NCBI GenBank assembly: GCA_001464475.1
Contig: LNDX01000007.1
Coordinates: 1 to 64,000 of the forward strand
DNA: 64,000 nucleotides
DNA from: Flavobacteriaceae bacterium Ga0077528
GTDB taxonomy: Bacteria; Bacteroidota; Bacteroidia; Flavobacteriales; Flavobacteriaceae
Direction of reading: 5' to 3'
Position 1 is the first letter of the stretch, and each line of letters begins with the position of its first letter. The notes beneath the pieces were generated by a model that saw only the letters and a program-made list of their open reading frames with translations, made no database searches and was not told where the DNA came from. This document shows, piece by piece, positions 22,340 to 39,818 of the stretch. Both the position numbers and the translations under genes were made by a program.

Positions 22340-22348
22340 TATATATTT

Positions 22349-22672: not shown

Positions 22673-22682
22673 TTTTACATTG

Positions 22683-23324: not shown

Positions 23325-23328
23325 ACTG

Positions 23329-23336
23329 CAAATGTA
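23329..23336 (-). promoter_or_regulatory. pyrE: -7 box (TACATTTG) of pyrE overlapping the Nudix start codon
   Basis: Perfect TAnnTTTG on the minus strand ending 4 nt before the pyrE ATG (TACATTTG-CAGT-ATG). The same bases contain the ATG of the divergent Nudix gene. Confidence 0.65.
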
Positions 23337-23943
23337 TAAAGTTTTTGTGAACGATAAACCACTTTTTTTGACAAATGAAGTCGCAAAGGAAACCGACTTT
23401 CAATTGTTTTTACTTGAAAGTGTTGACATTGAACAGCTTATTGTAAAGATGTTCAACAATAAGATTAATAAAGCTTATTTGTATTATCCAGACGAAAAGG
23501 AAATTCTGAAAAAAGTAAAGGAAAAAATCCCTGTAAAAAAAGCTGGTGGCGGATTGGTTTACAACAAAAATGGTGAAGTTTTATTCATTTTTAGAAACGG
23601 AAAATGGGATTTGCCAAAAGGCGGTTGCGATAAAGGTGAAGAAATTGAAGCTTGTTCTGTAAGAGAAGTGGAAGAAGAAACTGGCGTTCAAGGTTTGAAA
23701 ATCACTAAAAAACTTCAAAAAACGTATCATGTTTTCAAACGTAATGGTGAATATAGATTAAAAATCACGCATTGGTTTGAAATGAAAACCAATTTCGAAG
23801 ACAAATTAACACCTCAAAAAGAAGAAGGCATTAAAAAAGCCGTTTGGTTAAAACCTGAAGATGTTCAAGAGGCTTTGAAAAACTCGTACGAAAATATCAA
23901 ATTGTTGTTTCAAGAAGAAAATGAAAATAGTATCAAAATCTGA
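23332..23943 (+). CDS. Nudix hydrolase
   Basis: 203 residues. A ~70-residue N-terminal extension (MYKVFVNDKPLFLTNE...) precedes the Nudix domain. The Nudix box runs from G97 to V119: G-x5-E (E103)-x7-REVEEETGV. Members hydrolyse nucleoside diphosphates linked to another group; the substrate is not evident. Starts 7 bp from divergent pyrE and overlaps the following acetyltransferase gene by 23 bp. Confidence 0.92.
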   Translation: MYKVFVNDKPLFLTNEVAKETDFQLFLLESVDIEQLIVKMFNNKINKAYLYYPDEKEILKKVKEKIPVKKAGGGLVYNKNGEVLFIFRNGKWDLPKGGCDKGEEIEACSVREVEEETGVQGLKITKKLQKTYHVFKRNGEYRLKITHWFEMKTNFEDKLTPQKEEGIKKAVWLKPEDVQEALKNSYENIKLLFQEENENSIKI

Positions 23944-24382
23944 TGTATCAATTGAAGAAAAGGAAATCATCTTCCAACTTTGGAATGAAGAATATCCTGA
24001 GCGAATTTCGTATAATTCTATTGAAGATTTAGAAACTTATCTTAACAATTTAGCTGATGTAAATCATTATTTACTTTATAACGATTCCAATGAAATTAAA
24101 GGTTGGGCGATAACATTTATAAGAGAAAACGAAAAATGGTTTGCTATCATCATCAATTCAAAAATTAAAAATCAAGGTTTCGGAACGCAATTATTAAATC
24201 ATTTGAAATCTATTGAAAATAAGCTTTCAGGTTGGGTTATTGATCATGATAATGACCTGAAATCTGATGGAACTACATACATTTCACCATTACACTTTTA
24301 CCTCAAAAATGGTTTTTCAATTTGTGAAGGAATTCGAATCGAAACGGATAAAATTTCTGCTGTTAAGATTGTTTCAAAATAA
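23921..24382 (+). CDS. GNAT family N-acetyltransferase
   Basis: 153 residues. A GNAT-like core: strand IKGWAITFIRENEKWFAIIINSKIKNQGFGTQLLNHLKS carries the Q/RxxGxG/A-type acetyl-CoA loop as NQGFGTQ. The later part (LHFYLKNGFSICEG) matches the family's C-terminal FYxxxGF. Substrate unknown. Its start lies inside the end of the Nudix gene, so the two are coupled. It converges on a membrane protein gene with 25 bp between them and no clear terminator. Confidence 0.8.
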   Translation: MKIVSKSDVSIEEKEIIFQLWNEEYPERISYNSIEDLETYLNNLADVNHYLLYNDSNEIKGWAITFIRENEKWFAIIINSKIKNQGFGTQLLNHLKSIENKLSGWVIDHDNDLKSDGTTYISPLHFYLKNGFSICEGIRIETDKISAVKIVSK

Positions 24383-24407
24383 ATTGTAAATTAATTACAT
24401 CAAAACA

Positions 24408-25424
24408 TTAATACCATTCTTTCAACTCTTTGTCAAATTCTTTTTTGTTGTGATTTAAATATTCAAGCTCTAATACATATTCTTGTCCATCACAATTGTA
24501 TTCAATTTTATTTACAATGTAACTTTGTAGCAAGTTAAAATCTTGTTTCTCAATGATACTCTTAATTTCATTTGGATATTTACCAAATTTGCTTTTGTGA
24601 ACTTCAATTTCATTGGTGATTTTTATTCCAATTTTATTTGATGTAGCATCATAAATTTCAAATACAAGCAATAATACAATCATATTAATAAAACATAGAA
24701 ACGTCATTATTTTAGACCATTTGTATAGTAAAGATTTATTATTTGTGCCGCTGTACCATTTTGCAATCAAAGCAGAACATCCCATTATTACGATTATAGT
24801 CATAAAAGCAATGAAATTACTCAATGATGCAACTAATAAAATGATTAGTATAAATAAGTATAGAAGATAATTATTAAAGCCAATTATTGTATTTAATTTT
24901 TGATTTGATAAAAATATTCTAATGTGATTGGATCTTTCATTTTTTTCGGAATGAATTAATTTATTTATCAATTCTGAAAGTTTTATTTCGTCAACTTTTA
25001 TTTGGCTTAAATTTAAATTTAATTTCTGTGCACCAATTATTTCATTTAATTTTTCTACCCATTTATATTGTTTGGTTTCACTATCAAAAGCTTCGTTTAC
25101 TATTATTGAAATGAATTTTTGGTCATAAATATCTAATGGATAAGCTTCAATGATATAGTCCCATTCTATCAGCTCTTGTTTTAGTTTTTTATCGAAGATT
25201 CCATTTTCATTAATAATTATTTGTACTCTTTTATCAAAGAGTGTAAATATTCCAATTGGAATTCCTAAACCAAAAAACAATGTAGTGAACCAACCCATAT
25301 AATAATCAAAAGTGCCATTTTGTTCTCTTAAAATCACCCAAATACCAATTATTACAAAAGGCAATGAAAGAGCAATTATTTTAAACCCTTTTCCGCTTGA
25401 TTTGTATAATTTTATTTCAGCCAT
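24408..25424 (-). CDS. Membrane protein of unknown function
   Basis: 338 residues. Two N-terminal membrane helices (~14-30, ~37-60) precede a cytosolic PH-like stretch (VQIIINENGIFDKKLKQELIEWDYI), then a central charged region, then three further helices (~185-260). The tail (KSKFGKYPNEI ... QEYVLELEYLN) resembles a small soluble domain. No family is recognised with confidence. The gene is 34 bp downstream of the M14 peptidase gene and may be co-transcribed. Confidence 0.6.
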   Translation of the reverse strand: MAEIKLYKSSGKGFKIIALSLPFVIIGIWVILREQNGTFDYYMGWFTTLFFGLGIPIGIFTLFDKRVQIIINENGIFDKKLKQELIEWDYIIEAYPLDIYDQKFISIIVNEAFDSETKQYKWVEKLNEIIGAQKLNLNLSQIKVDEIKLSELINKLIHSEKNERSNHIRIFLSNQKLNTIIGFNNYLLYLFILIILLVASLSNFIAFMTIIVIMGCSALIAKWYSGTNNKSLLYKWSKIMTFLCFINMIVLLLVFEIYDATSNKIGIKITNEIEVHKSKFGKYPNEIKSIIEKQDFNLLQSYIVNKIEYNCDGQEYVLELEYLNHNKKEFDKELKEWY

Positions 25425-25458
25425 TATTTTTTATAAATGTAAATAAATGAAGATATAA

Positions 25459-27189
25459 TTACTCCATTATCCTATAAACTGGATATTGCAAATGCGCTTT
25501 TTCGTAATAAATAGAATTTTTATGAACCCAATCCAATTGAGCTTCTGGGTTTTCTGCAAAGGCTTTGTCTTCTAATTTCTTTTGTTCTAATTTGGCGCGC
25601 AATTCTGGATTTTTATTCAAATAGTCATTTGCTAAATCTTCAAAAACATAGTCGGAATAGCCTTCTTTTTGTTGCAATAAAGTGTCAAAAAAGTTCCAAT
25701 TGAAAAAGCTGTCCATCGCTTCTGGTTCTAATGTTTCTAGTAGAAATTTCACGCCCATTTGGTCGGTTTTGAACAAATAATCACCTTTTCTAAAATTCAT
25801 CTTTATTTTAGAACTTGTAATTTTTGTACTGTTGTGTGGATAATGTCCTTCGTAAGCATTTTTCGCTGTTTTATAATCGGCAATTCTATAACTTTCTACT
25901 TCAATTATCGTATCGGTTTTTAATCTTCGGAAGTCTAATTTATTTTCTTTCAAACGATCAATTACAGGCCAAAATCCTTGTGGAATAATATAAGCATTCG
26001 GAATTTTTACCGTTTGAACCGATTTATAATCTGCCATGAAAGGAATGTACTTTGTAAACGGAAGTTTTCGGTCGTAATACAATCGTTTGCCTGAAGTTAC
26101 ATCACTTTTTTTGTATTTTCCTTCGTAACCAAGAAACGGAATTTTGGTGATTTTGGTCGTATCAATTTCCCATTTAATTGTGTAATCACTTTTAGGTTGA
26201 AATTGTTTTTGATTTTCCAATCGTTTGGCTTTTATAGTTTTATAATTTTTATCAGCAAAATTTATTGTGGAAACCATAAACTCATAAGTAGCTTTCACAC
26301 GACTCGCGTAGTTTTTCAACATGTGCGTTTCAACAACAAAACCAATCGTATTAAACAAAGAAGTATAACCTGTAGCATACCTCGGACTTTCAAAAAACTG
26401 TTGAAAACCTTCGTCTGGTGTGCCGTGCCAAACGTTTACGTAAGGCGTGGTTTCTATCTTTTTTTGCTGTAAATCTTTTATAATCGATGGCGTCAATTCG
26501 TTTTTCATGTAATCGCCTAAAGCAGTTCCTAATTTCTTAGGTTCGGTCATGATGTAGGTCAACGTATATTGATAATCTGCGCCATTGCTCACGTGATTGT
26601 CTATGAAAATATCGGGATTAAATTCTTGGAATATTTTATAAAAACTATGCGTGTTTTTGGTGTCTGATTTGATGAAATCTCTGTTCAAATCAAAATTTCG
26701 AGCATTGCCACGAAAACCATATTCCTCTGGACCATCTTGATTGACGCGTGTCGTCGAATTTCTATTCAAACAACCACCAATATTATAAACCGGAATCGCA
26801 ACTACAATCACATTCTTTGGGACTTTAATTTTTCCTAAAGCCAAATCGCGGTACAATTGCATAGTCGCATCAATTCCGTCTGGTTCGCCTGCGTGAATTC
26901 CGTTATTGATTAATAGGATGCTTTTTTCGGAAGAGGCATAATTTAAATCAAATTCTTTTTCAGGATTGAAAATCACTACTTGCAAGCGTTCGCCACTATC
27001 GGTTTCACCCATATTTAAAACTTGAATGTTTTCAAAATCCAAATCCAATAGCTCATAATAACGAAGTATTTCTTGATAATCAGCACTTTGATTGCCATTT
27101 CCTTTTTCAAAATAGGTAGCGTATTTCGATTTATCTTGAGCCAAAAGAATTGTTGTAAATAGGAGGAAAGCAACTTTTATAAAACGCAT
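25459..27189 (-). CDS. M14 family zinc carboxypeptidase
   Basis: 576 residues, exported (signal peptide ends LLAQ). The zinc ligands are recognisable as H99 and E102 in HAGEPDG and H199 in DNHVSNG; the catalytic Glu is E287 in VVETHML. The DLNRDF segment matches the substrate-binding Asn-Arg pair. The ~240-residue C-terminal region after the catalytic domain is long for the family and probably a beta domain. Likely a periplasmic or secreted carboxypeptidase for nutrition. Confidence 0.92.
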   Translation of the reverse strand: MRFIKVAFLLFTTILLAQDKSKYATYFEKGNGNQSADYQEILRYYELLDLDFENIQVLNMGETDSGERLQVVIFNPEKEFDLNYASSEKSILLINNGIHAGEPDGIDATMQLYRDLALGKIKVPKNVIVVAIPVYNIGGCLNRNSTTRVNQDGPEEYGFRGNARNFDLNRDFIKSDTKNTHSFYKIFQEFNPDIFIDNHVSNGADYQYTLTYIMTEPKKLGTALGDYMKNELTPSIIKDLQQKKIETTPYVNVWHGTPDEGFQQFFESPRYATGYTSLFNTIGFVVETHMLKNYASRVKATYEFMVSTINFADKNYKTIKAKRLENQKQFQPKSDYTIKWEIDTTKITKIPFLGYEGKYKKSDVTSGKRLYYDRKLPFTKYIPFMADYKSVQTVKIPNAYIIPQGFWPVIDRLKENKLDFRRLKTDTIIEVESYRIADYKTAKNAYEGHYPHNSTKITSSKIKMNFRKGDYLFKTDQMGVKFLLETLEPEAMDSFFNWNFFDTLLQQKEGYSDYVFEDLANDYLNKNPELRAKLEQKKLEDKAFAENPEAQLDWVHKNSIYYEKAHLQYPVYRIME

Positions 27190-27247
27190 GAGTGTAATTT
27201 TTTTAGATTTTCAAAAGTAATTAACTTTTTCCAACTAGTATTTCGTA

Positions 27248-27275
27248 ATTCATAATTATTAATTCATAATTGGCT
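27248..27275 (+). repeat. Heptad repeat ATTCATA/ATTATTA next to the helicase promoter
   Basis: ATTCATA, ATTATTA, ATTCATA, ATTGGCT in strict 7-bp register, abutting the -7 box at 27277. The same unit occurs at 52151-52185. Confidence 0.85.
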
Positions 27276-27276
27276 T

Positions 27277-27284
27277 TATCTTTG
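27277..27284 (+). promoter_or_regulatory. -7 box (TATCTTTG) 4 nt before the helicase ATG
   Basis: Perfect TAnnTTTG; the layout TATCTTTG-CCAA-ATG matches that of pyrE and predicts a leaderless or nearly leaderless mRNA. Confidence 0.65.
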
Positions 27285-27288
27285 CCAA

Positions 27289-28632
27289 ATGAATAAAAAT
27301 CCACATTCCAATAATGTTCTTCTCAATTTAGGTATTGAGGAATTAAACGAAATGCAAGTTGTTGCTCAAGAAACCATCTTGAACGACGCCAATATTTTAC
27401 TACTTTCACCTACAGGTTCTGGAAAAACGTTAGCTTTTTTACTACCCATTTTTCAAATGTTGGGCGATACTTGCAAAGACGTTCAATGTTTGATTTTAGT
27501 TCCATCGCGTGAATTGGGTTTGCAGATTGAGCAAGTTTGGAAAAAAATGGGCACCGATTTCAAAGTAAATGTTTGTTATGGTGGTCATTCTATAGAAACA
27601 GAAATTAAGAATTTATCGAATCCTCCAGCGATTTTAATTGGAACGCCAGGTCGAATTGCCGATCATTTGGACAGAGGAACTTTTAATACAAATGATATCC
27701 AAACGTTGGTTTTGGACGAATTTGATAAGTCGTTGCAATTGGGTTTTCATGAGCAAATGAGTTTTATCATTTCAAGATTGAACAAGTTGAACAAACGCGT
27801 TTTGGTTTCGGCGACTTCCGATATTGAAATTCCGAAATACACACGAGTTTTGCAGCCAACGGTTTTGGATTTTATTCCAACGGAAGATTCGAGTAGCAAT
27901 TTGAGTTTGAAAATGGTCGTTTCTAAAGAAAAGGACAAAATTAATGCGCTTTTCAATTTGCTTTGTTCTTTAAAATCGGAAGCGGCGATTATCTTTTGCA
28001 ACCATCGTGATGCTGCCGAACGCATTAGCGACACATTGAACGAAAAAGGAATTTACTCGACGTATTATCATGGTGGCATGGATCAAGACGAACGCGAACG
28101 TGCTTTAATTCAGTTTAGAAACGGAAGTGTGAGTTATTTAATCACGACCGATTTAGCAGCGCGCGGATTAGACATTCCCGAAATGAAACACGTTATTCAT
28201 TATCATTTGCCGTTAAAAGAAGACGAATTTACCCATAGAAATGGTCGTACAGCTAGAATGTTAGCTTCTGGAACGGCGTACATTATTGCACATGAAAGTG
28301 AAAAAAAAATGGAGTATTTAGATTATAAAATGCCTGTTTTAAATTTAGAAAACGCAACAACTTTACCAAAACCACCCGAATTTCAAACGATTTATGTAAG
28401 TGGCGGAAAGAAAAACAAATTGAATAAAATTGACATTGTAGGTTTCTTTTCTCAAAAAGGAAAACTAGAAAAAGGTGATTTGGGCTTGATTGAAGTAAAA
28501 GATTTCATTTCGTTTGCTGCCGTAAAATCTAAAAAAGTAAAACAATTTTTGGCGAACATTCGTGATGAAAAAATGAAAGGAAAGAAGTTTAAAATTGAGG
28601 TTGCAAGGAAAGTTGTTAAGAAAGAGGAGTAG
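27289..28632 (+). CDS. DbpA-like DEAD-box RNA helicase
   Basis: 447 residues. Motif I SPTGSGKT (40-47), Ia PSRELG, motif II DEFD (143-146, in place of DEAD), motif III SAT (174-176), motif VI HRNGRTAR (316-323). The C-terminus (~372-440) looks like a DbpA RNA-binding domain (SGGKKNKLNKIDIVGFF ... IEVKDFISFAAV). DbpA binds 23S rRNA helix 92 during large-subunit assembly. The final Ala-to-Phe change in motif II is unusual. The promoter is built on a heptad repeat. Confidence 0.92.
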   Translation: MNKNPHSNNVLLNLGIEELNEMQVVAQETILNDANILLLSPTGSGKTLAFLLPIFQMLGDTCKDVQCLILVPSRELGLQIEQVWKKMGTDFKVNVCYGGHSIETEIKNLSNPPAILIGTPGRIADHLDRGTFNTNDIQTLVLDEFDKSLQLGFHEQMSFIISRLNKLNKRVLVSATSDIEIPKYTRVLQPTVLDFIPTEDSSSNLSLKMVVSKEKDKINALFNLLCSLKSEAAIIFCNHRDAAERISDTLNEKGIYSTYYHGGMDQDERERALIQFRNGSVSYLITTDLAARGLDIPEMKHVIHYHLPLKEDEFTHRNGRTARMLASGTAYIIAHESEKKMEYLDYKMPVLNLENATTLPKPPEFQTIYVSGGKKNKLNKIDIVGFFSQKGKLEKGDLGLIEVKDFISFAAVKSKKVKQFLANIRDEKMKGKKFKIEVARKVVKKEE

Positions 28633-28786
28633 GGTTTAAAAAAAACGTTCCATGCTTTTCGTCTGTTGCTGCTGCAAGCGCGAAACAAACCTTAAAAATT
28701 TCTTTGAAAATAGAGTTGTAGTCATCAGATTATTTTTCACGAAGAACAAAATAGTAAGCCCAGCCCAGCAATAGCGCAAACATGTG

Positions 28787-28802
28787 TTATGCGTCGTTCT
28801 TT
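28787..28802 (+). repeat. Left arm of a 16-bp inverted repeat bracketing the RloC-like gene
   Basis: TTATGCGTCGTTCTTT lies just outside the stop codon of the RloC-like gene (28806). Its inverted partner, with one mismatch, is at 31193-31208. The neighbouring 28633-28786 has no gene; it contains a G-rich GGGCTGGGC stretch on the minus strand. Confidence 0.75.
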
Positions 28803-28805
28803 TGA

Positions 28806-31136
28806 TTATATTAGTTGTATCAATTTCAGAGTTCTTTCACAATAATTTCTTAATTCAGCATCTGTTATCGGTTCGCTGTCGGCATTTGTATTATGTCTAT
28901 GATGATACTTTTTAGAATAATCATTTATATCAGCCAATTCATTAACTTCTGGCAGCAATCTGTTGTAAGCGTCCGTGGCATTTGAGTTTCTAACTTTATC
29001 AATAAAATTACCAAGCCATTCAGAAGGTGTTACTATATCAAAAAATTTTAGATGAAAATAGCTTTCTAACGCTGGTCTAATGCATCTTGCAATATTTCTT
29101 CTGTCTTGGTCAGTATAGCAACCATTGACCAAGTAGTTTTTGATTGTAGTGCTATCTTTTAGGACGCTTGATAATGTTTCATTGTCTATTAAATATTCTA
29201 CAATACAGCTTGTATTTCCGATGAATTCTATTTTACTACATTGAGTAGTTAAATTTGTTTGGTTTGCATTCTTCCAGAATTCTCCAGCAAAAATAATATT
29301 ATGAGTAAGAACAAATAATTGTTTTGCTTGTTGTCCAAAATATAACAGTTTTGATATAGTAGTTGATTTTCTATTAAGGTCAAAACTGGAAACAGGATCG
29401 TCAAAAACGATTATCTTATCTTGAATATTTCCATCAACTTCTAATTTTGTTAAAAAGAAAGCTAAAGCTAAAGCGGTTTTGTCTCCTTCACTTAAAGAAT
29501 ATTTAAAGCTTTGAGTAATTGGATTTTCTTCAAGTTTAATTTCATTTCCGTTTATGTGTAATGCATATTTTATCATTGGCTCTTTACTGCTGCCAACATA
29601 CACGCTATCTAATCCACGAATCTCCAAATACGGAGCAAACGCTTGAAGATATTGGTTAATTTTAGTAGAATAACTTGAAAATATTGTTGTAGAATATGTG
29701 TCGAGTAAACCTTGTTTAGTATCTTTTTCTACTTTAAGATTTTCAACGGCAGAATTATAAGTTACTAAATCAGTGCATAGACCATTAATAGTTGAATCGT
29801 TTCTTTTTTGTATGGCTTTGAGTTTTTTTAAATCTGTTTCTAGTAACGCTGAATTAGGTTGACTCATAGATTTCATTGCACTAATTGACAAATTGTATGC
29901 CGTAATATTAGTATTAAAGTCCTCAATTTTTTTATTGAAAGCGATGACTATATTTTCAAAATGTGTTAGGCTTGAAAACTCCTGAGCCTCAATCGGATTT
30001 TCTGATTTTAGGCGAAAACTTTCTTTTATTGCATCAAAAGATTCTTTAAAATTTTCTTTTTCATGGATTATTGATGTCAAATTAGGTATTTGAGGAATGT
30101 GAGTTTTCCAAAATTCGATCAAGTTTAAGTTTGCAGTTATTTTATTTTCTATTTCTAAGAATTGAGCTTCTAAATTAAAACTTGAAATGGATAAGTTTTG
30201 TTTTTTTAACTCTTCGAGTAATGTTTTATACTCTTCGTTAAAGTATTGCTTATACGCTTTAATTATTTCTATTGAATCATCCAATGGTCTTAAGCAAAAG
30301 GGACAATCATCATTTTCATTTTCTATTGTTTCATATCCTTGTTTAATCCACTGTTCAGATGTTCCATCCATATCAAGATGTTCTTTATGTTCATTGAATC
30401 TTTCTAGATATGTATCGGATATATTATCAATAGATTTTGATAGAGTTGTCTTTAATTCAGAAATGTTAAAAGGAAGTTCAAGTAATTGAATTTCATTTAA
30501 TGATACCTTCGACTGAATTGTTTGAAAGTTATTTGCAGTTACAATTTCAGCTTCTTTAAGTGATATTTTATTTTCAATGTCTAAGTCAACTGGAATAGTT
30601 GTATAAGCTACAGCAGAGTATGCATTGTCTATCGCAAGTTCAATTTTATCTGAAGTTTCTTTAATAATTTTGTTACCATTCTGTATTCTTTCTTTTATAG
30701 ATTGAATTTCTAGTTTTAATGTAATCCCTTGCTGTCCAAAAATTACCTCAAATAGATTCTTTTTATGTGAAGTTTGAATTTCTAAACCAGTATATATATT
30801 CTCATTGATAAAATGGATGTCAAAAATTTCTATATTTGGATAATGATTATCCCAAACGTTAGTATTGTAAGTTGATTTAGGATTTGTAGCATTATCTGTC
30901 AAAACTTCTATCGTTTGAGAAAAAGTTGTATCAAAAGCTCTTTTCTTTGGTAACAGAAGATTGTCTCCTTTCAATGAATTTAGTATTATTGCCATTGTTG
31001 TCTTTCCACTACCATTTTCTCCGTAAATGAGATTTAACTTTTCAAAATCTGTAGTTCTATGTCCTGATAAAACTGTACTGTGGTTATAATTTAGAAACTT
31101 CCCTGTACCCGATATTTTTATAAATCTCTTTATCAT
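28806..31136 (-). CDS. RloC-like ABC ATPase with zinc hook, candidate anticodon nuclease
   Basis: 776 residues of AAA_13/RloC architecture. Walker A GENGSGKTT (39-47); long coiled-coil arms with a central zinc-hook motif CPFC (278-281); ABC signature LSEGDK (548-553); Walker B IIVFDDP (575-581); H-loop LTHN (610-613). The C-terminal ~115 residues carry RxxxE (R687, E691) and an HHRH cluster (745-748), in the region where PrrC/RloC tRNases place their Arg-Glu-His catalytic set. RloC proteins cut tRNA in response to DNA damage or phage, exceeding PrrC in excising the wobble base. Nuclease activity here is inferred. It stands alone, without a restriction system, and is closely bracketed by an inverted repeat. 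Confidence 0.8.
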   Translation of the reverse strand: MIKRFIKISGTGKFLNYNHSTVLSGHRTTDFEKLNLIYGENGSGKTTMAIILNSLKGDNLLLPKKRAFDTTFSQTIEVLTDNATNPKSTYNTNVWDNHYPNIEIFDIHFINENIYTGLEIQTSHKKNLFEVIFGQQGITLKLEIQSIKERIQNGNKIIKETSDKIELAIDNAYSAVAYTTIPVDLDIENKISLKEAEIVTANNFQTIQSKVSLNEIQLLELPFNISELKTTLSKSIDNISDTYLERFNEHKEHLDMDGTSEQWIKQGYETIENENDDCPFCLRPLDDSIEIIKAYKQYFNEEYKTLLEELKKQNLSISSFNLEAQFLEIENKITANLNLIEFWKTHIPQIPNLTSIIHEKENFKESFDAIKESFRLKSENPIEAQEFSSLTHFENIVIAFNKKIEDFNTNITAYNLSISAMKSMSQPNSALLETDLKKLKAIQKRNDSTINGLCTDLVTYNSAVENLKVEKDTKQGLLDTYSTTIFSSYSTKINQYLQAFAPYLEIRGLDSVYVGSSKEPMIKYALHINGNEIKLEENPITQSFKYSLSEGDKTALALAFFLTKLEVDGNIQDKIIVFDDPVSSFDLNRKSTTISKLLYFGQQAKQLFVLTHNIIFAGEFWKNANQTNLTTQCSKIEFIGNTSCIVEYLIDNETLSSVLKDSTTIKNYLVNGCYTDQDRRNIARCIRPALESYFHLKFFDIVTPSEWLGNFIDKVRNSNATDAYNRLLPEVNELADINDYSKKYHHRHNTNADSEPITDAELRNYCERTLKLIQLI

Positions 31137-31192
31137 AAACTTTCAAATATTTGTAAAAATAATCATTTAGGTTTGGTTTAGCTATAGTCGTG

Positions 31193-31208
31193 AAAGAATG
31201 ACGCATAA
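31193..31208 (-). repeat. Right arm of the inverted repeat bracketing the RloC-like gene
   Basis: Reads TTATGCGTCATTCTTT on the minus strand, 15 of 16 identical to the left arm at 28787-28802. It lies 56 bp before the start of the RloC-like gene. Confidence 0.75.
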
Positions 31209-31254
31209 GGTGTCGTCGCTTCACGAAGTTGTGGATTTTCAACACTTTCGTTTA

Positions 31255-31262
31255 CAAATATA
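31255..31262 (-). promoter_or_regulatory. Candidate -7 box (TATATTTG) of the RloC-like gene
   Basis: Perfect TAnnTTTG on the minus strand about 118 nt before the start codon. The inverted-repeat arm would therefore be in the 5' leader of the mRNA. Confidence 0.5.
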
Positions 31263-31340
31263 GACAAAATTTAGCTTCAAAATTACCAATTCTGATATAT
31301 ACCAAACCCCGCAATTTCGTGAAACGGTTGTTAGTGGTTG

Positions 31341-32243
31341 TTATTTTTCAGGTTCGTTTTTAACATATTTTTTCAAAGCCATTCTCGGCAAACCTAATCC
31401 TAATGTTTGTCTATCTTGATAAACATAAACAGGTTTTTCTTTATAATTTTGATTTATTAAATCTTTTTTATCATTGTATTTTTCAGGCAATTTATTTACT
31501 AAATCGTTTAGTTTTTCATAATCAAATTCGTGTATTTCAATTCTGTTTTTGAGGATTTCGATAATATCATCAAGTATATATTTAACCTCTCTATTCAATT
31601 CAACTTGAAGTAGAGCTGTTCTCAAATAACTAGAAAGTGCATTTGATTCCACACCTTTAATTTTCCAAATATCCCCTTCATTTTTCTCTACATTGATTTT
31701 AAGAGCTTTTACTTCGTCAGTCAACTCTTTTTTGTAAGAACTAATTTTAAAATTAATTAATTCCTCTTTAATGTCCAATAAACTTTTTGATTTTTCAAGT
31801 TCATTATTTATTTTGTCAACAACATCTTTTTCGAGTTTTTCTAATAATTTATCTAATTTTTCGATTTGCTCTTTATTGATTATTGCAAAATCATTTTTAA
31901 GTTCAGATTTTAATTCTGTTATTTTTTCATCAATGTCTTTTTTTATGTAATCGATTTCTTTTTTATTTATTCTCCAATTGAAAAAAATTTGGCTTCCAAG
32001 AATTGCTAAAAGAAATGCAACTGATATTCCTATAACCCATTGAATAGTCGTTATCAATGAATTATTATTTTCTTTAGCATTTTCATAGAGTAATTTATAA
32101 GCACCACTTTCTGTTAGATTAGTTTTCTTTTCGGTACTAATTTTCTGTGCAATACTCTCTTTTGAATTTGAATCAATTTTTTGTGCATTTGTTAAATAAA
32201 AAACTAATAATAAAAAAAATAATGCTTTAAATTTATGTTTCAT
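31341..32243 (-). CDS. Coiled-coil membrane protein of unknown function
   Basis: 300 residues. Signal peptide (MKHKFKALFFLLLVFYLTNAQ), short extracytoplasmic segment, one transmembrane helix (~64-88, TTIQWVIGISVAFLLAILGSQIFF), then ~130 residues of strongly charged heptad-type coiled coil, and a helical C-terminal part (SNALSSYLRTALLQVELNREVKY). No enzyme motif is visible. It lies in the accessory stretch upstream of the RloC-like gene but has a different junction (205 bp), so a joint function is only possible. Fast-evolving or acquired is inference. Confidence 0.6.
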   Translation of the reverse strand: MKHKFKALFFLLLVFYLTNAQKIDSNSKESIAQKISTEKKTNLTESGAYKLLYENAKENNNSLITTIQWVIGISVAFLLAILGSQIFFNWRINKKEIDYIKKDIDEKITELKSELKNDFAIINKEQIEKLDKLLEKLEKDVVDKINNELEKSKSLLDIKEELINFKISSYKKELTDEVKALKINVEKNEGDIWKIKGVESNALSSYLRTALLQVELNREVKYILDDIIEILKNRIEIHEFDYEKLNDLVNKLPEKYNDKKDLINQNYKEKPVYVYQDRQTLGLGLPRMALKKYVKNEPEK

Positions 32244-32426
32244 ATTTTAATTTACAGATTTTAAGTTTTAAAATTGCGTTAGATTTTTGAGTCTTGCGGT
32301 ATAATAGCCAAAAACTCTCTAATATGCGCCACAAACAAAAGTTTACATTTATTTGTAAGCGTTTGTAATGAATCGTAAATATATAAAAATATACCTTGAA
32401 TAATTACGGTTTTCCTCATTCCATAA

Positions 32427-32466
32427 AAAAAAGCTAAAAATTAGTTCTAACTTTTAGCTTTTTTAA
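32427..32466 (-). terminator. Intrinsic terminator after coaD
   Basis: AAAAAAGCTAAAA pairs with TTTTAGCTTTTTT (outer, 32427-32439/32452-32464) and TTAG with CTAA (inner), ending in T on either strand. The remainder of 32244-32426 shows no gene. Confidence 0.8.
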
Positions 32467-32490
32467 TAGTATTTTTAATCTGCAAACAGT

Positions 32491-32943
32491 TTAAATCCTC
32501 ACAGAATCTGGTACTAAAACCGTATAATCGCCACCATTTCGCAATACATCGCGCACAATACTTGAGGAAATATAAGACGTTTTGGATGCGGTTAATAAGA
32601 ACACAGTTTCAATTTTAGACAAGCGTCTGTTGGTGTGGGCAATGGCTTTTTCAAATTCAAAATCGGCAGGATTTCGCAAGCCACGTAAGATGAATTCGGC
32701 TTTTTCTTTTCGGCATAAATCAATCGTCAAACCTTCGTACGTGATTACTTTTACTTTGGGTTCGTCTTTAAAAGCTTCTTCGATAAAGCGTTTTCGGTCT
32801 TCAAGAGAAAACATGTATTTTTTTTCGGCATTGATTCCAATGGCTACAATGACTTCATCAAAAAGCGAAATGCCTCTTTTAATAATGTCGTAATGACCAT
32901 TTGTAATAGGATCAAAGGAACCTGGAAATATGGCTTTTTTCAT
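32491..32943 (-). CDS. coaD: Pantetheine-phosphate adenylyltransferase
   Basis: 150 residues. Nucleotidyltransferase motif PGSFDPITNGHYDII (the HxGH-type site reads NGHYD), later RGLRNPADFEFE and TASKTSYISSSIVRDVL. It makes dephospho-CoA from 4'-phosphopantetheine and ATP. Its ATG shares one base with the stop of the zinc-ribbon gene (TAATG), so translation is coupled. Last gene of the ddl-coaD operon. Confidence 0.97.
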   Translation of the reverse strand: MKKAIFPGSFDPITNGHYDIIKRGISLFDEVIVAIGINAEKKYMFSLEDRKRFIEEAFKDEPKVKVITYEGLTIDLCRKEKAEFILRGLRNPADFEFEKAIAHTNRRLSKIETVFLLTASKTSYISSSIVRDVLRNGGDYTVLVPDSVRI

Positions 32944-33551
32944 TAGTTTCTTTCAATTTCGTATATTTTCTTGTCTTTATACATTTTTCTAATTTCTTCT
33001 TTAGAATAACCATAAAGCTCTTTGTAGTTTTCAGGTTTGTCAATGTCATTGATTCCTGAAGTTTTGTTGGTTTCCATATCATTTACAAGAACATGAAGAC
33101 TATCTTTCAAAACGCTTTCAACTTTCATTGTAGAATAATACCCTGGATTTGATTCAAATTTATAAATGTCACCCACTTTTGGAGCTTTTAGATATTCGGC
33201 TTCTTTTTTCTCAGTTTCACCAGAACTATAAATTCCAATGGCAACTAAAACAGCAACAATTCCCAATCCTGAAAACATCCAAATTGGAGTTTTTGCACCG
33301 TCTTTTTCTTTTTCTCTGTCTAATTTTGTTTGAATAGGTTGCGGTAATTCGCTGTATTCAAAGGTTCTTTTGCAATTATTACATTCAGCTACAGTTGTTT
33401 TTCCAATTGGAAAAAACGGAATCCAATAAACATGAGCATACTTACCGAAAACGGCGTAATTCATTGAAGTATTGGTTTCACAATGAGGACAATCTACATT
33501 GATTACTTGTCCGTTTTTGATATTGCTTGCTTTTGTTCCGTAAAAAATCAT
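32943..33551 (-). CDS. Zinc-ribbon membrane protein, paralogue 3
   Basis: 202 residues. N-terminal zinc ribbon with CPHC (residues ~21-24) and CNNC (~57-60), separated by a hydrophobic stretch YAHVYWIPFFPIGK. A single membrane helix (~93-110) follows, then a ~90-residue C-terminal domain (VGDIYKFESNPGYYSTMKV ... YGYSKEEIRKMYKDKKIYEIERN). The C-terminal domain is shared with the two genes upstream. I do not recognise a named family. Confidence 0.7.
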   Translation of the reverse strand: MIFYGTKASNIKNGQVINVDCPHCETNTSMNYAVFGKYAHVYWIPFFPIGKTTVAECNNCKRTFEYSELPQPIQTKLDREKEKDGAKTPIWMFSGLGIVAVLVAIGIYSSGETEKKEAEYLKAPKVGDIYKFESNPGYYSTMKVESVLKDSLHVLVNDMETNKTSGINDIDKPENYKELYGYSKEEIRKMYKDKKIYEIERN

Positions 33552-33651
33552 AGTTTTGGTTTTGGTTAGTTTTTTTATTGATGTAATTCGATTTTCTTTA
33601 TACTTTGTGTTTTAAAATTACTTGTAAAAATGCTACTTCGTACTATTATAA

Positions 33652-34047
33652 TTAATCTCTATTAACAGAAATAATAGAATCTTGCGCGAACAGACTTTCT
33701 AGTTTTTTCTTAGAGTAGGCTTCTTTAAAAAGACCATAATTTCTGTCAATATCAATCTCGCTTATTCCTTCAACTTTATCCGTTTTCATATTGTTAACGG
33801 TAACAAAAATAGTATCATTTCTTAAATAGAGAACTTTTGCAGTGCTATAAAAACCATCCTCAATTTTCATTTCATAGACATCTCCAGCTTTAGGATTATC
33901 AATATATGTTTTTTCTTTGTCTCTTTTGTAGGTGTAATAAATAGCACCAATTCCCATTAAAAGAGCGATTGATACTATTATTATGATTACAATCCAAATG
34001 GGTTTTAATTTTTTGCTTTTGTTTTCTTGAGGGTTTGAGTTTTCCAT
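33652..34047 (-). CDS. Membrane protein, paralogue 2 (no zinc ribbon)
   Basis: 131 residues: a short N-terminus rich in Asn/Lys, one membrane helix (~18-40) and the shared C-terminal domain (AGDVYEMKIEDGFYSTAKV ... AYSKKKLESLFAQDSIISVNRD). It lacks the zinc-ribbon half of its neighbours, apparently a truncated or domain-lost version. 9 bp upstream ends the next paralogue gene. Confidence 0.7.
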   Translation of the reverse strand: MENSNPQENKSKKLKPIWIVIIIIVSIALLMGIGAIYYTYKRDKEKTYIDNPKAGDVYEMKIEDGFYSTAKVLYLRNDTIFVTVNNMKTDKVEGISEIDIDRNYGLFKEAYSKKKLESLFAQDSIISVNRD

Positions 34048-34056
34048 AGTTTTTGG

Positions 34057-34665
34057 TTAGTTTCTTATTATTGATGAAATTTTGTCTTCTTTGTATAGAT
34101 TTTCTAGTTCTTTTTTTGAATAAGTTATTTTCTTGCTGGTGTAATTTTCTGGAATGTTTATTTCATCAACTTCATACGGTAATTCTGCTTGATAATCGCT
34201 TTCTGTGGCATAAATACTGTCATTTGAAATGCTATCAATTCTAAAAGTATAATAAAATCCTTTAGCATCTTTTATAGCATAAACATCATTTACAGTTGGA
34301 TTTTGAACGTATTTTTCAGTTTCATTATTACTTTGAAAATAGTAATAAATTCCATAAGCAATAGCCAAAGCTAATAAAAAACTACCAAAATAAGTCCAAA
34401 TAGGATTTTTTAAATTATTATTTTCTGCAGCTAATTTTTCAACTATAGTATCATCCAAATCGTTGATGTCAATTATTTCGTTACAATTATTGCATACAAC
34501 AACAGCTTCTTTTCCAACAGGAAATAAAGGAATTAGAGTTATAAAAGTATAATTGGTATTTACAAAATAGTCAAAATTGGCAACTTCTCTACATTTAGGA
34601 CAAATTGTACCTGAAAAATTTCCTTTTTTTATTTCTGTTGATTTTGTACCTAAAATTAAAAGCAT
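34057..34665 (-). CDS. Zinc-ribbon membrane protein, paralogue 1
   Basis: 202 residues, built like the gene at 32943: zinc ribbon CPKC/CNNC, a central segment TFITLIPLFPVGK, a membrane helix (~109-128), and the shared C-terminal domain (VNDVYAIKDAKGFYYTFRI ... TYSKKELENLYKEDKISSIIRN). It begins 4 bp after ddl and is likely in the same operon. Confidence 0.7.
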   Translation of the reverse strand: MLLILGTKSTEIKKGNFSGTICPKCREVANFDYFVNTNYTFITLIPLFPVGKEAVVVCNNCNEIIDINDLDDTIVEKLAAENNNLKNPIWTYFGSFLLALAIAYGIYYYFQSNNETEKYVQNPTVNDVYAIKDAKGFYYTFRIDSISNDSIYATESDYQAELPYEVDEINIPENYTSKKITYSKKELENLYKEDKISSIIRN

Positions 34666-34669
34666 AAGC

Positions 34670-35656
34670 TTACTTTTTCCAAATTAGTTTTCTCTGTAAA
34701 GCTAAACTAATTTCGTTATCTAGCAAATCGCTCATAGGCATATTTGAGTAAGCTGCTTGTTGTGGAAAAATACTTTGTGGTGATAAACCCGGATTGGTAT
34801 TGATTTCGATAAAATGCGGAATGTCATTCATAATAATAAAATCGGTTCTTGAAAAACCAGACATTCCAAGTGCTTCATACACTTTTTTAGCCGTTTCTTC
34901 CACACTATTTTTAATTTCTTCTGATAAATTAGCTGGCGTAACTTCTTCTGATTTGCCTAAATATTTGGCTTCATAATCGAAGAAATCATTTTCAGATAAA
35001 ATTTCGGTGATTCCCATCACTTTGGTTTCACCTTTGTATTTAATAACACCAACCGAAACTTCTCTTCCTTTTAAGTAGGATTCAATTAAAATATCGTTGT
35101 CTTCTGCGAAAGCAAAGGCTAAAGCTTTGTCAAAATCTTCTAGCGAATTTACTTTTGAAACACCAAGAGAACTTCCGGATTGATTGGGTTTTACAAAGAA
35201 CGGCAAACCTAATTCTTGAGCCACTTCGTTTCCATCAATAGCATCACCTTTTGATAAATAAATAGAATTGGCTTTTGGGATATTGAATTTTGATAAAACC
35301 GAAAGCGTATCACGTTTGTTAAAAGTCAAACTCGATTGGTAAAATCCGCAACCTGTGTACGGAATTTCTAGTAATTCCCAATACGCTTGCATGTGTCCAT
35401 CTTCGCCTGGAGTTCCGTGAATGGTATTGGATATTACATCAAATTTGATGGTTTGATTGTCTTTTGTTAATGAAAAATCAGCTTTGTTTATTGGGTATTT
35501 TGTTCCGTCAATTAGGCAATACCAATCGTTCAAAAGGATGTGAACTTCAAATACTTGGTATTTTGATTTGTCTAAATTGTTTAAGATTAATTGACCACTT
35601 CTTAAAGATATTACAGATTCATCCGAATATCCACCCATAACAACGGCTACGTTCAT
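34670..35656 (-). CDS. ddl: D-alanine--D-alanine ligase
   Basis: 328 residues. ATP-grasp ligase with GGYSDESVISLRSG near the N-terminus, VKPNQSGSSLGVSKV, ILIESYLKGREVSVGVI and HFIEINTNPGLSPQS. It makes the D-Ala-D-Ala dipeptide for peptidoglycan. First gene of the operon, divergent from the PASTA gene with 83 bp between starts; TAAATTTG at 35680-35687 (minus) is its candidate -7 box. Confidence 0.97.
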   Translation of the reverse strand: MNVAVVMGGYSDESVISLRSGQLILNNLDKSKYQVFEVHILLNDWYCLIDGTKYPINKADFSLTKDNQTIKFDVISNTIHGTPGEDGHMQAYWELLEIPYTGCGFYQSSLTFNKRDTLSVLSKFNIPKANSIYLSKGDAIDGNEVAQELGLPFFVKPNQSGSSLGVSKVNSLEDFDKALAFAFAEDNDILIESYLKGREVSVGVIKYKGETKVMGITEILSENDFFDYEAKYLGKSEEVTPANLSEEIKNSVEETAKKVYEALGMSGFSRTDFIIMNDIPHFIEINTNPGLSPQSIFPQQAAYSNMPMSDLLDNEISLALQRKLIWKK

Positions 35657-35712
35657 TTGATTTTATTTTAAATACAATACAAATTTAGCACAATTGTTGA
35701 AACTAAAAATTA

Positions 35713-35720
35713 TATCTTTG
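35713..35720 (+). promoter_or_regulatory. Candidate -7 box (TATCTTTG) of the PASTA-rluA pair
   Basis: Perfect TAnnTTTG, 19 nt before the ATG; a TTG at 35694-35696 is 16 nt upstream, close to the usual spacing. Confidence 0.65.
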
Positions 35721-35739
35721 CGATAAATAAATTTTATTT

Positions 35740-36363
35740 ATGAGTTTACGTAAATATCTTACTAGTCGTGTGTTTTTTGCTCAAGGTCTGGCAGCATTAG
35801 CAATAATAGCAGTTTTGGCTTATTTGTTTTTTCATTGGATTACTTTTATTACCAATCATGGTGAGGAAATTACAGTTCCCAATTTGGCAAAATTAAATCC
35901 AGAACAAGTAGAAGAAAAATTAGACGAATTAGATTTGGATTACCAAATTATTGATACAGTTGATTATCAACCACAATTTCCTAAACTTACAGTGGTGCAA
36001 CAAGAACCTACAGCTGGTTCTAAGGTAAAAGGAGGAAGAACCATTTATATAAAATTAAATGCCTCAACTTTCAAAATGGTTGCTGTTCCAGATTTAATTG
36101 AAAAGACTTACAGACAAGCTGTTCCAACATTGAAAGCACTTGGATTACAAGTAGGAACTATTAGATACATACCTTACATTGGTAAAGATATGGTTCGTGA
36201 AATGTGGATTAATGGCGTGAAAATTGAACCAGGAAAGAAAGTATATAAAGCTACCAAAATTGATTTGGTTCTTGGAGACGGAAAAGTAGTTTTTGATGAA
36301 ACAGAGATAGATTCAATTATTGAAACTGAAACTCCAATAGATACCATTCCGAATGAACAATAA
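35740..36363 (+). CDS. PASTA domain membrane protein
   Basis: 207 residues. One N-terminal membrane helix (~13-35) and an extracytoplasmic region with two clear PASTA-like repeats (VPNLAKLNPEQVEEKLDELDLDY; VPDLIEKTYRQAVPTLKALGLQ) and perhaps part of a third. PASTA modules bind muropeptides or cell-wall polymers. Conserved next to ddl, which fits a wall-linked role. Overlaps the following gene by 11 bp. Confidence 0.88.
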   Translation: MSLRKYLTSRVFFAQGLAALAIIAVLAYLFFHWITFITNHGEEITVPNLAKLNPEQVEEKLDELDLDYQIIDTVDYQPQFPKLTVVQQEPTAGSKVKGGRTIYIKLNASTFKMVAVPDLIEKTYRQAVPTLKALGLQVGTIRYIPYIGKDMVREMWINGVKIEPGKKVYKATKIDLVLGDGKVVFDETEIDSIIETETPIDTIPNEQ

Positions 36364-37393
36364 TAGTGACTTACAAGAACCTGAAGAAGAACTTTTTGAG
36401 CATTACAGATTTGACGTTCCTAAAGGTCAAGCATTTTTAAGAATTGACAAATACTTGATGTTGATGGTTCCGAATGCAACCAGAAACAAAATTCAAAATG
36501 CGGCTTCCAATGGCGATATTTATGTAAATGACGTTCCGGTAAAGTCTAATTATAAAGTAAAACCATTTGATGTAATTAGAATTTTATTAGCGCATCCGCC
36601 ATTTGAAAATAGGGTAGATCCTGAAGATATTCCATTAGATATAGTTTATGAAGACGACGCTTTATTAGTGATTAATAAACCGCCAAATTTTGTTGTACAT
36701 CCAGGTCACGGAAATTACACAGGAACTTTGGTGAATGCATTGGCTTTTCATTTCGAAAATTTACCTTTAAACAGTTCAGAACGCCCAGGATTGGTGCATC
36801 GTATTGACAAAGATACTTCTGGACTTTTGGTTGTTGCCAAGACTGAAGCTGCTATGACGCATTTGGCAAAGCAATTTGAAGATAAAACTTCAGAAAGAGA
36901 ATATATTGCCTTAGTTTGGGGAAATGTGAAAGAAGATGAAGGTACAATAGTTGGAAATATAGCTCGTCATGTTAGAGATAGAATGCAGATGGCTGTCTTT
37001 GCCGATCCAGAAATAGGAAAGCATGCGGTTACTCATTATAAAGTTTTAGAGCGATTTGGTTATGTTACTTTAGTTTCATGTAAATTAGAAACTGGTCGTA
37101 CACATCAGATTCGTGTGCACATGAAGCATATTGGTCATACTTTATTTAACGATGAACGTTATGGTGGAAATCTTATTTTGAAAGGAACCACTTTTACTAA
37201 ATACAAACAGTTTATAGACAATTGTTTTAAAACATTACCACGTCAAGCACTTCATGCTAAAACACTTGGTTTCATTCATCCAAAGACTGGTGAAATGATG
37301 CGATTTGATACAGAAATTCCCAAGGATATGGCTGATTGTATTGAAAAATGGCGAAACTATTCCAAATCAAATGCCTCTGAGGAAGAAGAATAA
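36353..37393 (+). CDS. RluA-family 23S rRNA pseudouridine synthase (RluD-like)
   Basis: 346 residues. An N-terminal S4 RNA-binding domain (LRIDKYLMLMVPNATRNKIQNAASNGDIYVNDVPV) precedes the catalytic domain with the signature HRIDKDTSGLLVVAK (Asp catalytic) and later LETGRTHQIRVHMKHIGH. It isomerises uridines in 23S rRNA. Start lies inside the PASTA gene; the run ends at a strong terminator. Confidence 0.95.
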   Translation: MNNNSDLQEPEEELFEHYRFDVPKGQAFLRIDKYLMLMVPNATRNKIQNAASNGDIYVNDVPVKSNYKVKPFDVIRILLAHPPFENRVDPEDIPLDIVYEDDALLVINKPPNFVVHPGHGNYTGTLVNALAFHFENLPLNSSERPGLVHRIDKDTSGLLVVAKTEAAMTHLAKQFEDKTSEREYIALVWGNVKEDEGTIVGNIARHVRDRMQMAVFADPEIGKHAVTHYKVLERFGYVTLVSCKLETGRTHQIRVHMKHIGHTLFNDERYGGNLILKGTTFTKYKQFIDNCFKTLPRQALHAKTLGFIHPKTGEMMRFDTEIPKDMADCIEKWRNYSKSNASEEEE

Positions 37394-37430
37394 AAAAAAG
37401 ACCTTTAGAAATTTCTAAAGGTCTTTTTTT
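37393..37430. terminator. Bidirectional intrinsic terminator
   Basis: AAAAAAGACCTTTAGAAA pairs over about 18 bp with TTTCTAAAGGTCTTTTTT. It serves the rluA-type gene and the converging endonuclease gene. Confidence 0.9.
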
Positions 37431-37446
37431 ATGGGGTTGAAACTTA

Positions 37447-38577: not shown

Positions 38578-38585
38578 TTTCAATT

Positions 38586-39800: not shown

Positions 39801-39818
39801 TATTTTTTAATCAGTCTG

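What the first reader, a model, noticed from the sequence alone, without database searches (positions are those of the whole stretch)
28806..31136. Stand-alone RloC-like ABC ATPase with zinc hook: candidate phage-defence tRNase
Seen: Walker A, coiled-coil arms with CPFC hook, LSEGDK signature, Walker B and H-loop in one 776-residue chain, plus a C-terminal RxxxE (687-691) and HHRH (745-748). Known: RloC/PrrC nucleases combine an ABC ATPase with an Arg-Glu-His tRNase. Inferred: this protein cuts tRNA upon DNA damage or infection. The R/E-to-H spacing (~55) is larger than in PrrC (32), so it may be a diverged subfamily or have another target.
Basis: partly seen in the sequence, partly recalled or inferred. 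Interest (0 to 1): 0.8.

Follow-up and report, generated by a model that had tools for sequence, protein, structure and literature searches.

The report
RloC-like RNase on integron-like cassette
This bacterial gene most likely encodes a dormant RNA-cutting enzyme that would shut down the cell's protein synthesis when DNA damage or a virus is sensed, and it sits inside a small mobile gene cassette, so such self-sacrifice defences may travel as ready-made single-gene cassettes in this group of bacteria.

Summary
The motifs are real, on the minus strand at the stated coordinates. The protein is a Rad50/SMC-type ABC ATPase (Pfam AAA_13; PADLOC candidate PDC-S06) with a CPFC zinc hook and a C-terminal helical domain whose predicted structure is closest to HEPN RNases (best Z 10.4). 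R687, E691 and H746 are invariant in the 36 proteins aligned; H745 is His in 34, H748 is not conserved. E-X54-H lies just outside the published RloC range (36-52), with HH instead of SH: an RloC-like subfamily rather than textbook RloC. RNA cleavage, tRNA targeting and phage defence remain inference.

New: the gene is an integron-like gene cassette. Its 3' end carries an attC-like repeat (32 sites in the genome), its start is complementary to its own attC core (9 of 10 bases), and the upstream cassette ends in a second site; both lie between a DEAD helicase and coaD, which are adjacent in some relatives. Two hook-less relatives in its clade, one of the same genus, also lie in such cassettes. 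Arrays of these sites follow an IntI/Xer-like recombinase lacking the IntI-specific segment. Verdict: new variant of a known kind; the cassette system deserves its own study.

The parts
28806..31136 (-). RloC-like gene, 776 aa (P0001)
   Evidence: ORF; AAA_13 142 bits; PDC-S06 192 bits
30996..31022 (-). Walker A GENGSGKTT (residues 39-47)
30294..30305 (-). zinc-hook motif CPFC (residues 278-281)
   Evidence: C278, C281 invariant in 22 of 22 rows
29478..29495 (-). ABC signature LSEGDK (548-553)
29394..29414 (-). Walker B/D-loop IIVFDDP (575-581); H-loop His612 follows
28809..29204 (-). C-terminal stretch 645-776 modelled alone; HEPN-like domain
   Evidence: AF2 pLDDT 89.7, pTM 0.82; HEPN matches
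29076..29078 (-). Arg687
   Evidence: invariant in 24 of 24 rows of A4 and 36 of 36
29064..29066 (-). Glu691
28899..28901 (-). His746, the invariant histidine
28636..28797 (-). attC-like site of the RloC-like cassette (model hit; R'' core GACGCATAAC at its 5' end)
31197..31342 (-). attC-like site of the upstream cassette, directly 3' of the 300-aa ORF
28646..31208 (-). inferred extent of the gene cassette (about 2.56 kb) between the two junctions
   Evidence: junction/R'' complementarity 9 of 10; 16-nt inverted repeat 28787-28802 / 31193-31208
31341..32243 (-). 300-aa ORF of the upstream cassette (signal peptide/TM and coiled coil by eye), no confident family
27289..28632 (+). flanking DEAD-box helicase gene (host; name from sequence, recalled)
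32491..32943 (-). flanking coaD gene (host; name recalled)

Best explanation
The gene encodes a latent translation-stopping RNase that works like RloC. Two Rad50-like ATPase heads and a zinc-hook coiled-coil arm (shown as sequence and model) hold a pair of C-terminal HEPN domains (fold shown by model only) inactive; DNA ends, DNA damage or phage attack change the ATPase/hook state (inferred from RloC), the HEPN site R687/E691/H746 becomes active (inferred), and RNA, most likely tRNA anticodon loops, is cut, halting growth and phage production (inferred). The gene is carried as an integron-like gene cassette: its own attC-like site follows the stop codon, the cassette start is complementary to that site's 5' core, and it lies with a second cassette between a DEAD-box helicase gene and coaD.
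For: Family and motifs. Invariance of C278, C281, R687, E691, H746 in 22 of 22; R, E, H in 36 of 36 and CxxC in 34 of 36, the exceptions being two hook-less proteins. Head fold: SMC/Rad50/RecF heads, Z 19.6-22.9 in the 50 rows shown, covering about 1-656. C-terminal domain: ranks 1-23 of VIA-align (Z 10.4 to 7.4) are HEPN or HEPN-like; 11 of these 23 titles say HEPN, the rest are MntA-HepT or SO_3166 toxins and small proteins that I take to be HEPN-like; the first clearly unrelated row is rank 24, Z 7.0. Published mutagenesis: Arg692, Glu696 and His737 of G. kaustophilus RloC are each needed for tRNase activity and a zinc-hook mutation raises it (PMC2610378, passages). Defence-like contexts of homologues: type III mod-res starting 6 bp after the gene in L007, Eco57I-type methylase about 2 kb from L003's gene; R-M genes annotated within the fetched flanks of 4 of 11 plasmid homologues (L011, L012, L015, L018); 23 loci on IMG/VR viral contigs, 3 of them head-only matches. 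Cassette; neighbouring genes in relatives; relatives in cassettes.
Against: No RNase or defence assay. E-X54-H lies outside the published X36-52 range and HH replaces SH. The literal HEPN motif Rx4-6H is absent (positions 739-741 are D, Y, S). Foldseek E-values for the C-terminal domain are weak (best 0.4), and Z 8-13 can arise among helical bundles. The PADLOC PrrC model did not match this protein at E up to 1, though it matches three of five relatives weakly (22.7-25.4 bits). No direct sequence comparison with a characterised RloC was possible. The upstream junction reads CTT instead of GTT; whole-site folding of the two window sites is unremarkable; the 5' AAC core is present in only 10 of the 18 aligned sites; 6 of 16 cassette pairs score 3-8 of 10; the genome's recombinase is below the integron-integrase cut-off; close relatives L003, L005 and L007 show no such site.
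Confidence: 0.66

Rival explanations
1. Same architecture and HEPN RNase, but the target is not a tRNA anticodon (mRNA, rRNA, another tRNA region), perhaps triggered by something other than DNA damage.
For: HEPN RNases have diverse RNA targets (PMC3710099, passages); the HH motif and longer E-H spacing differ from characterised RloC.
Against: Closest characterised architecture (ABC ATPase, hook, R-X3-E...H) is that of the tRNase RloC.
Confidence: 0.22
2. A Rad50/SMC-like DNA-repair or chromosome protein whose C-terminal helical bundle is only structural.
For: Head matches Rad50, SMC and Lamassu LmuB structures.
Against: R687, E691 and H746, with one glycine, are the only invariant residues of a domain with 38% mean column identity over 24 rows; patchy presence (2 of 199 family genomes incl. 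own) and carriage on plasmids, viral contigs and cassettes do not fit a housekeeping repair role.
Confidence: 0.06
3. The repeats flanking the gene are an ordinary dispersed repeat family or another mobile element, and the gene's position between them is incidental.
For: No consensus base pair by RNAalifold; recombinase lacks the IntI-specific segment; several copies sit at contig ends; the 16-nt inverted repeat is no rarer than chance when 3 mismatches are allowed (2 found, 2.33 expected).
Against: Unit starts match the complement of their own 3' site at 9 or 10 of 10 bases in 10 of 16 consecutive pairs against 27 of 976 other pairs, 0 of 20000 permutations as high; arms of a site pair better with each other than with those of other sites on average; in 10 of the 12 genomes with a recombinase row within 10 kb of a listed site, the site is downstream on the same strand.
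Confidence: 0.08

Closest known systems
RloC (Geobacillus kaustophilus, Acinetobacter baylyi)
   Same: Single chain with ABC ATPase, coiled-coil CXXC zinc hook and C-terminal R-X3-E...H; only rarely in an R-M locus (PMC2610378, passages)
   Different: E-X54-H and His before the His, against X36-52 and often Ser; target and trigger unknown here; carried in an integron-like cassette
PrrC
   Same: ABC ATPase head, R-X3-E...H HEPN RNase
   Different: PrrC has no zinc hook, a shorter E-H spacing (R320, E324, H356) and a linked type I R-M; the PADLOC PrrC model did not hit this protein
PADLOC candidate PDC-S06
   Same: Best library match, 192 bits over residues 1-699
   Different: The library states no mechanism for PDC-S06; one paper lists it as a PADLOC prediction in one S. 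thermophilus strain (PMC11514479, passages)
Gene cassettes of chromosomal integrons (CALIN: attC cluster without integrase)
   Same: ORF followed by an attC-like site, GTT junction in most sites, cassette start complementary to its own R''
   Different: Host phylum where complete integrons were hardly reported (PMC9024848, passages); the genome's recombinase lacks the IntI-specific segment

Membership tests
RloC | Rad50-like ABC ATPase head | tested here: met
RloC | CXXC zinc hook inside a coiled-coil insert | tested here: met
   CPFC lies between long helices (236-253 and 289-319) in the model, with low pLDDT at the hook; invariant in A2
RloC | Arg-X3-Glu in the C-terminal part | tested here: met
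   R687, E691
RloC | Glu-X36-52-His, Ser often before His (as published for 72 proteins) | tested here: not met
   X54, His before His
RloC | Anticodon nuclease activity, wobble-nucleotide excision | not testable with these tools
   needs bench work
PrrC | No zinc-hook insert | tested here: not met
   CPFC hook present
PrrC | Linked type I R-M operon | tested here: not met
   neighbours are a DEAD helicase, a 300-aa ORF and coaD; nearest N6_Mtase (PF02384) hit of the contig is about 70 kb away; other R-M families were not searched
HEPN superfamily | HEPN helical fold | tested here: met
   predicted domain: sacsin HEPN 3o10 Z 10.4, rmsd 3.0 over 112; 2hsb Z 10.0, rmsd 3.3 over 112; a model, and Z under 13 is only moderate for helical bundles
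HEPN superfamily | Rx4-6H motif | tested here: not met
   D739, Y740, S741 at the three possible positions before H746 (sequence)
Integron gene cassette | ORF directly followed by an attC-type site shared with other cassettes of the genome | tested here: met
Integron gene cassette | cassette start (R') complementary to own R'' | tested here: met
   9 of 10 bases for this cassette; 10 of 16 pairs at 9 or 10 in the loci examined
Integron gene cassette | attC single-strand hairpin | tested here: inconclusive
   own arms pair better than swapped arms (mean -16.2 against -10.8 kcal/mol over 31 sites; 3 of 30 swaps as good for the RloC-like site, 0 of 30 for the upstream one); whole-site z below -2 in 16 of 31, but -0.22 and -0.74 for these two
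Integron (complete) | IntI integrase with the IntI-specific additional domain | tested here: not met
   TIGR02249 hit skips profile 177-237 and is under the cut-off; 17 residues here against 59 (184-242) in IntI4

The most novel reading that the evidence does not exclude
A widespread but overlooked integron-like system of this genus, run by a tyrosine recombinase without the IntI-specific segment, circulates RloC-type suicide RNases as single-gene cassettes, including compact versions that have lost the zinc hook yet keep the R/E/HH site, so that dormant translation-stoppers are traded and parked at new chromosomal sites.
Probability: 0.5. Interest if true: 0.78.

Novelty: new variant of a known kind. 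Interest (0 to 1): 0.6.

Why it matters
It gives a defined, testable member of a little-studied RloC-like branch (HH type) and natural hook-less relatives, an evolutionary experiment on what the zinc hook does: in G. kaustophilus RloC a hook mutation raises RNase activity, so hook-less natural forms must be restrained otherwise. It also suggests that a whole abortive-defence protein of 776 residues can be a single gene cassette of about 2.56 kb, larger than the roughly 2 kb that one paper took as the largest annotated cassette (PMC8352920, passages), in a phylum where complete integrons were hardly reported.

Tried and rejected
Whole-protein comparison with solved structures by sequence gave only weak or head matches, mostly Rad50 and other ABC ATPases; no chain named RloC or PrrC is among the rows shown, which says nothing about their fold. 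The full-length model alone could not test the C-terminus, since only about 1-656 was covered, so the domain was modelled apart. NCBIfam gave only sub-threshold matches. The first viral scan with the single sequence found no relative; the alignment query found 23 loci. Phage records: one partial match. Rfam and tRNA scans of the window found nothing.

TIR-like transposon reading of the 16-nt inverted repeat around the gene: set aside after the repeats proved to be attC-like sites of many cassettes. Covariance model with structure: RNAalifold found no consensus pair, so model R1 is sequence only.

A first complementarity script picked several wrong junctions by regular expression (7 of 14 own pairs at 9 or 10, against 14 of 490 others; the RloC-like pair scored 4); I replaced it by alignment columns (10 of 16 against 27 of 976; the RloC-like pair 9). 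The second rule is fixed by columns, not by the score, but I had seen the sequences before. A first co-location count used hand-picked rows (10 of 10 downstream, same strand); redone with all 49 recombinase and all 150 site rows shown it is 10 of 12 genomes: in G635 (37% identical recombinase) the site is 190 bp upstream on the opposite strand, and in G622 two 35% recombinases have sites 5.7-9.7 kb downstream on the opposite strand, while its 72% recombinase has same-strand sites 11 kb downstream.

L003, L005 and L007 show no model hit in the flanks held, and L007 lies in a type III R-M operon: not every relative is a cassette. L006 is split into two frames; only its longer part was used.

Literature: searches. 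The search for RloC with integron listed 6 papers, none with both terms in title or abstract; only the HEPN review was opened (passages). The search for attC, Flavobacteri, integron and gene cassette listed 7, none opened. I recall, from no call, recent reports of anti-phage systems in integron cassettes; most subscription journals are not held, so no absence in print is claimed beyond these searches.

Full report
OBSERVATION. The ORF of 776 codons lies at 28806-31136 on the minus strand. Walker A (39-47), CPFC (278-281), LSEGDK (548-553), Walker B (575-581), H-loop His612, R687-x3-E691 and HHRH 745-748 are all present. Pfam gives AAA_13 (142 bits, cut-off 36). PADLOC gives PDC-S06, a candidate defence label, at 192 bits over residues 1-699; its PrrC model is not among the 16 families with E up to 1, though it matches three of five relatives weakly.

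CONSERVATION. Alignment A2 (window protein plus 21 relatives from genome and viral contigs) has invariant C278, C281, R687, E691 and H746. In 36 proteins aligned, R, E and H are present in 36 of 36, the residue before H746 is His in 34 of 36, the E-to-H spacing is 54 in 27 of 36 (range 51-68), and the CxxC hook is present in 34 of 36. Left out of that set: L002, L006, L022 and the weak or partial hits L026-L047, and the viral loci L088, L090, L093, L096 and L104-L108. In the wider alignment distant AAA_13 proteins have other residues before the same His, among them Ser (YSH, ESH), which is the published RloC pattern (R-X3-E-X36-52-H, Ser often before His; PMC2610378, passages read). So H746 is the likely catalytic residue, and the HH/X54 form is a subfamily trait.

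FOLD. Full-length model: pLDDT 84.9, pTM 0.54. PDB matches are Rad50, SMC, cohesin, RecF and Lamassu LmuB heads, Z 19.6-22.9 in the 50 VIA rows shown, over about residues 1-656. The C-terminal stretch 645-776, modelled alone from 24 sequences, has pLDDT 89.7 and pTM 0.82. Foldseek E-values are weak (best 0.4) but the leading rows are HEPN toxins or domains. VIA-align gives sacsin HEPN 3o10 Z 10.4 (rmsd 3.0, 112 aligned), AF0298 HEPN 2hsb Z 10.0 (rmsd 3.3, 112), HepT and SO_3166 toxins about Z 8; ranks 1-23 are HEPN or HEPN-like (11 titles say HEPN, the rest is my reading) and rank 24, alpha-catenin, has Z 7.0. For helical bundles Z 8-13 is only moderate evidence; it agrees with the published assignment of the PrrC and RloC nuclease domains to HEPN (PMC3710099, passages). 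The literal Rx4-6H motif is absent, so the arginine would have to come from R687 in another helix, as mutagenesis of RloC suggests. I could not measure distances between the residues.

MECHANISM. Shown: ATPase motifs, hook, invariant R/E/H, predicted folds. Inferred from RloC: zinc hook and ATPase keep the RNase silent, DNA breaks or phage attack release it, tRNA anticodon loops are cut, translation stops. Trigger and RNA target are not established. R-M genes are annotated within the fetched flanks in 4 of 11 plasmid loci (L011, L012, L015, L018; the gene table of that collection is incomplete). Of the five genome contigs relatives, L007's gene is followed after 6 bp by a type III mod-res pair and L003's lies about 2 kb from an Eco57I-type methylase, with a DUF3800 gene between. 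Among the ORFs of window 22000-40000 I see no R-M gene (by eye); the nearest PF02384 hit on the contig is about 70 kb away, and other R-M families were not searched.

DISTRIBUTION. The gene is patchy: 2 of 199 family genomes incl. its own and 27 of 395 phylum genomes, 19 of them only weak matches with E above 1e-8. Around coaD in the same genus, 59 of 61 genomes have a match and loci were made for the best 30; of the 29 that are not the window's own (about 2-3.5 kb each), none holds the RloC-like gene or the 300-aa ORF; in 4 (L058, L059, L060, L063) the helicase gene lies 20-181 bp from coaD, in 10 more 0.7-1.3 kb away with other small genes between, and in 15 it was not seen in the stretch held.

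CASSETTE. The stretch just 3' of the gene has 10 matches in the genome, itself included, and the stretch just 3' of the 300-aa ORF has 3. On contig C6 such repeats follow small ORFs in a row downstream of a tyrosine recombinase. Eighteen copies were aligned (A3): the 3' end reads ACGTT in 16 of 18 (the site upstream of our gene has ACCTT), the 5' core has AAC in 10 of 18. A sequence-only model (R1) finds 32 sites at E up to 0.01 in the genome, the 18 training copies included, with both window sites. In 16 consecutive same-strand pairs within 5 kb the ten bases at the upstream junction match the reverse complement of the next site's R'' at 9 or 10 positions in 10 pairs, against 27 of 976 other pairs; no permutation of 20000 reached the sum; the other six pairs score 3-8. 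For the RloC-like cassette it is 9 of 10, and the 16-nt inverted repeat 28787-28802/31193-31208 is this relation; as a bare pattern with 3 mismatches it is no rarer than chance in the window. The ends of a site pair better with each other than with those of other sites (mean -16.2 against -10.8 kcal/mol over 31 sites, own pair best in 10), though whole-site folds of the two window sites are ordinary. So the inferred unit 28646-31208 looks like an integron gene cassette, with the 300-aa ORF as the cassette before it. Excision or movement was not seen.

RELATIVES IN CASSETTES. R1 has 3 hits in 9 loci of relatives: directly 3' of the hook-less gene in L021, directly 5' of the hook-less gene in L025 (same genus as the window), and after the gene that follows the RloC-like gene in L004. 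Reading the flanks, L025 and L021 show start-to-R'' matches of 14 of 15 bases and L004 8 of 10 (hand-chosen positions; there GTT decamers matching at 9 or better are 2 of 163 in L025, 2 of 84 in L021 and 1 of 147 in L004, the site itself included). The two hook-less proteins (about 480-520 aa) fall with five hooked rows, the window's among them, into one seven-row group at 99% SH-aLRT (quick tree, no bootstrap, unrooted, L025 on a long branch; six rows are Bacteroidota by title or kinship, L003 is an unnamed bacterium). If the root lies outside it, the hook was lost within this group.

RECOMBINASE. The C6 recombinase matches XerA/integron-integrase models (NF040815 210 bits, cut-off 220; TIGR02249 205 bits, cut-off 265) but skips TIGR02249 positions 177-237 and, against IntI4, has 17 residues where IntI4 has 59, so the IntI-specific domain described in PMC9668308 and PMC2426708 (passages) seems missing. 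All 14 control genomes also give sub-threshold matches to TIGR02249, so that match alone means little. In the genus, R1 hits 44 of 61 genomes and the recombinase 37 of 61 at 1e-30. With all 49 recombinase rows and the 150 site rows that were shown (the site list is cut), 12 genomes have both within 10 kb; in 10 the sites are downstream on the same strand, in G635 upstream and opposite, in G622 (two distant recombinases) downstream and opposite.

KNOWN OR NEW. Only In0 elements were known from Bacteroidetes before the IntegronFinder 2.0 survey, which added a complete integron in Salinibacter (PMC9024848, passages); another paper lists Bacteroidota among phyla with integrons (PMC9668308, passages). 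HEPN domains in integron cassettes are known from Gammaproteobacteria (PMC3710099, passages). The protein is therefore a new variant of a known kind; the cassette system is the less expected part.

Noticed in passing
L120 8889-18034 (G000:C6:158888-168033): Integron-like array: an IntI/Xer-like tyrosine recombinase without the IntI-specific segment, followed mostly on the same strand by small ORFs with attC-like sites; similar layout in 9 further genomes of the genus.
   Followed up: partly
attC-like sites of the genome, incl. window 31197-31342: 24 of 31 attC-like sites carry TAnnTTTG in cassette orientation against 4 of 31 in the other (mononucleotide shuffles mean 3.0, max 9), resembling the Bacteroidetes -7 promoter element (recalled); each site may promote the next cassette. 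The sites share ancestry, so the count is not independent.
   Followed up: partly
L021 225-1793 (-) and L025 982-2427 (+): Hook-less relatives (about 480-520 aa) with the same R/E/HH site, inside cassettes; L021 lies downstream of what reads like a recombinase C-terminus (by eye), i.e. a possible first cassette.
   Followed up: partly
window 31341-32243 (-): 300-aa ORF with apparent signal peptide, TM and coiled coil, no confident family; the cassette upstream of the RloC-like gene.
   Followed up: no
L121 1942-3678 (-) (G000:C11): Alw26I/Eco31I/Esp3I-like type II methyltransferase (66 bits, under the model's cut-off of 353.5) close to another attC-like site (L121 3773-3942), so R-M parts may travel in the same cassettes.
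   Followed up: no
G635:C2:120331-121436: A 37% identical recombinase with an attC-like site 190 bp upstream on the opposite strand, the layout of a canonical integron (the canonical layout is recalled).
   Followed up: no
window 32943-34665: Two 202-aa zinc-ribbon proteins and a related 131-aa ORF between coaD and ddl; only some genus loci show a relative there.
   Followed up: no
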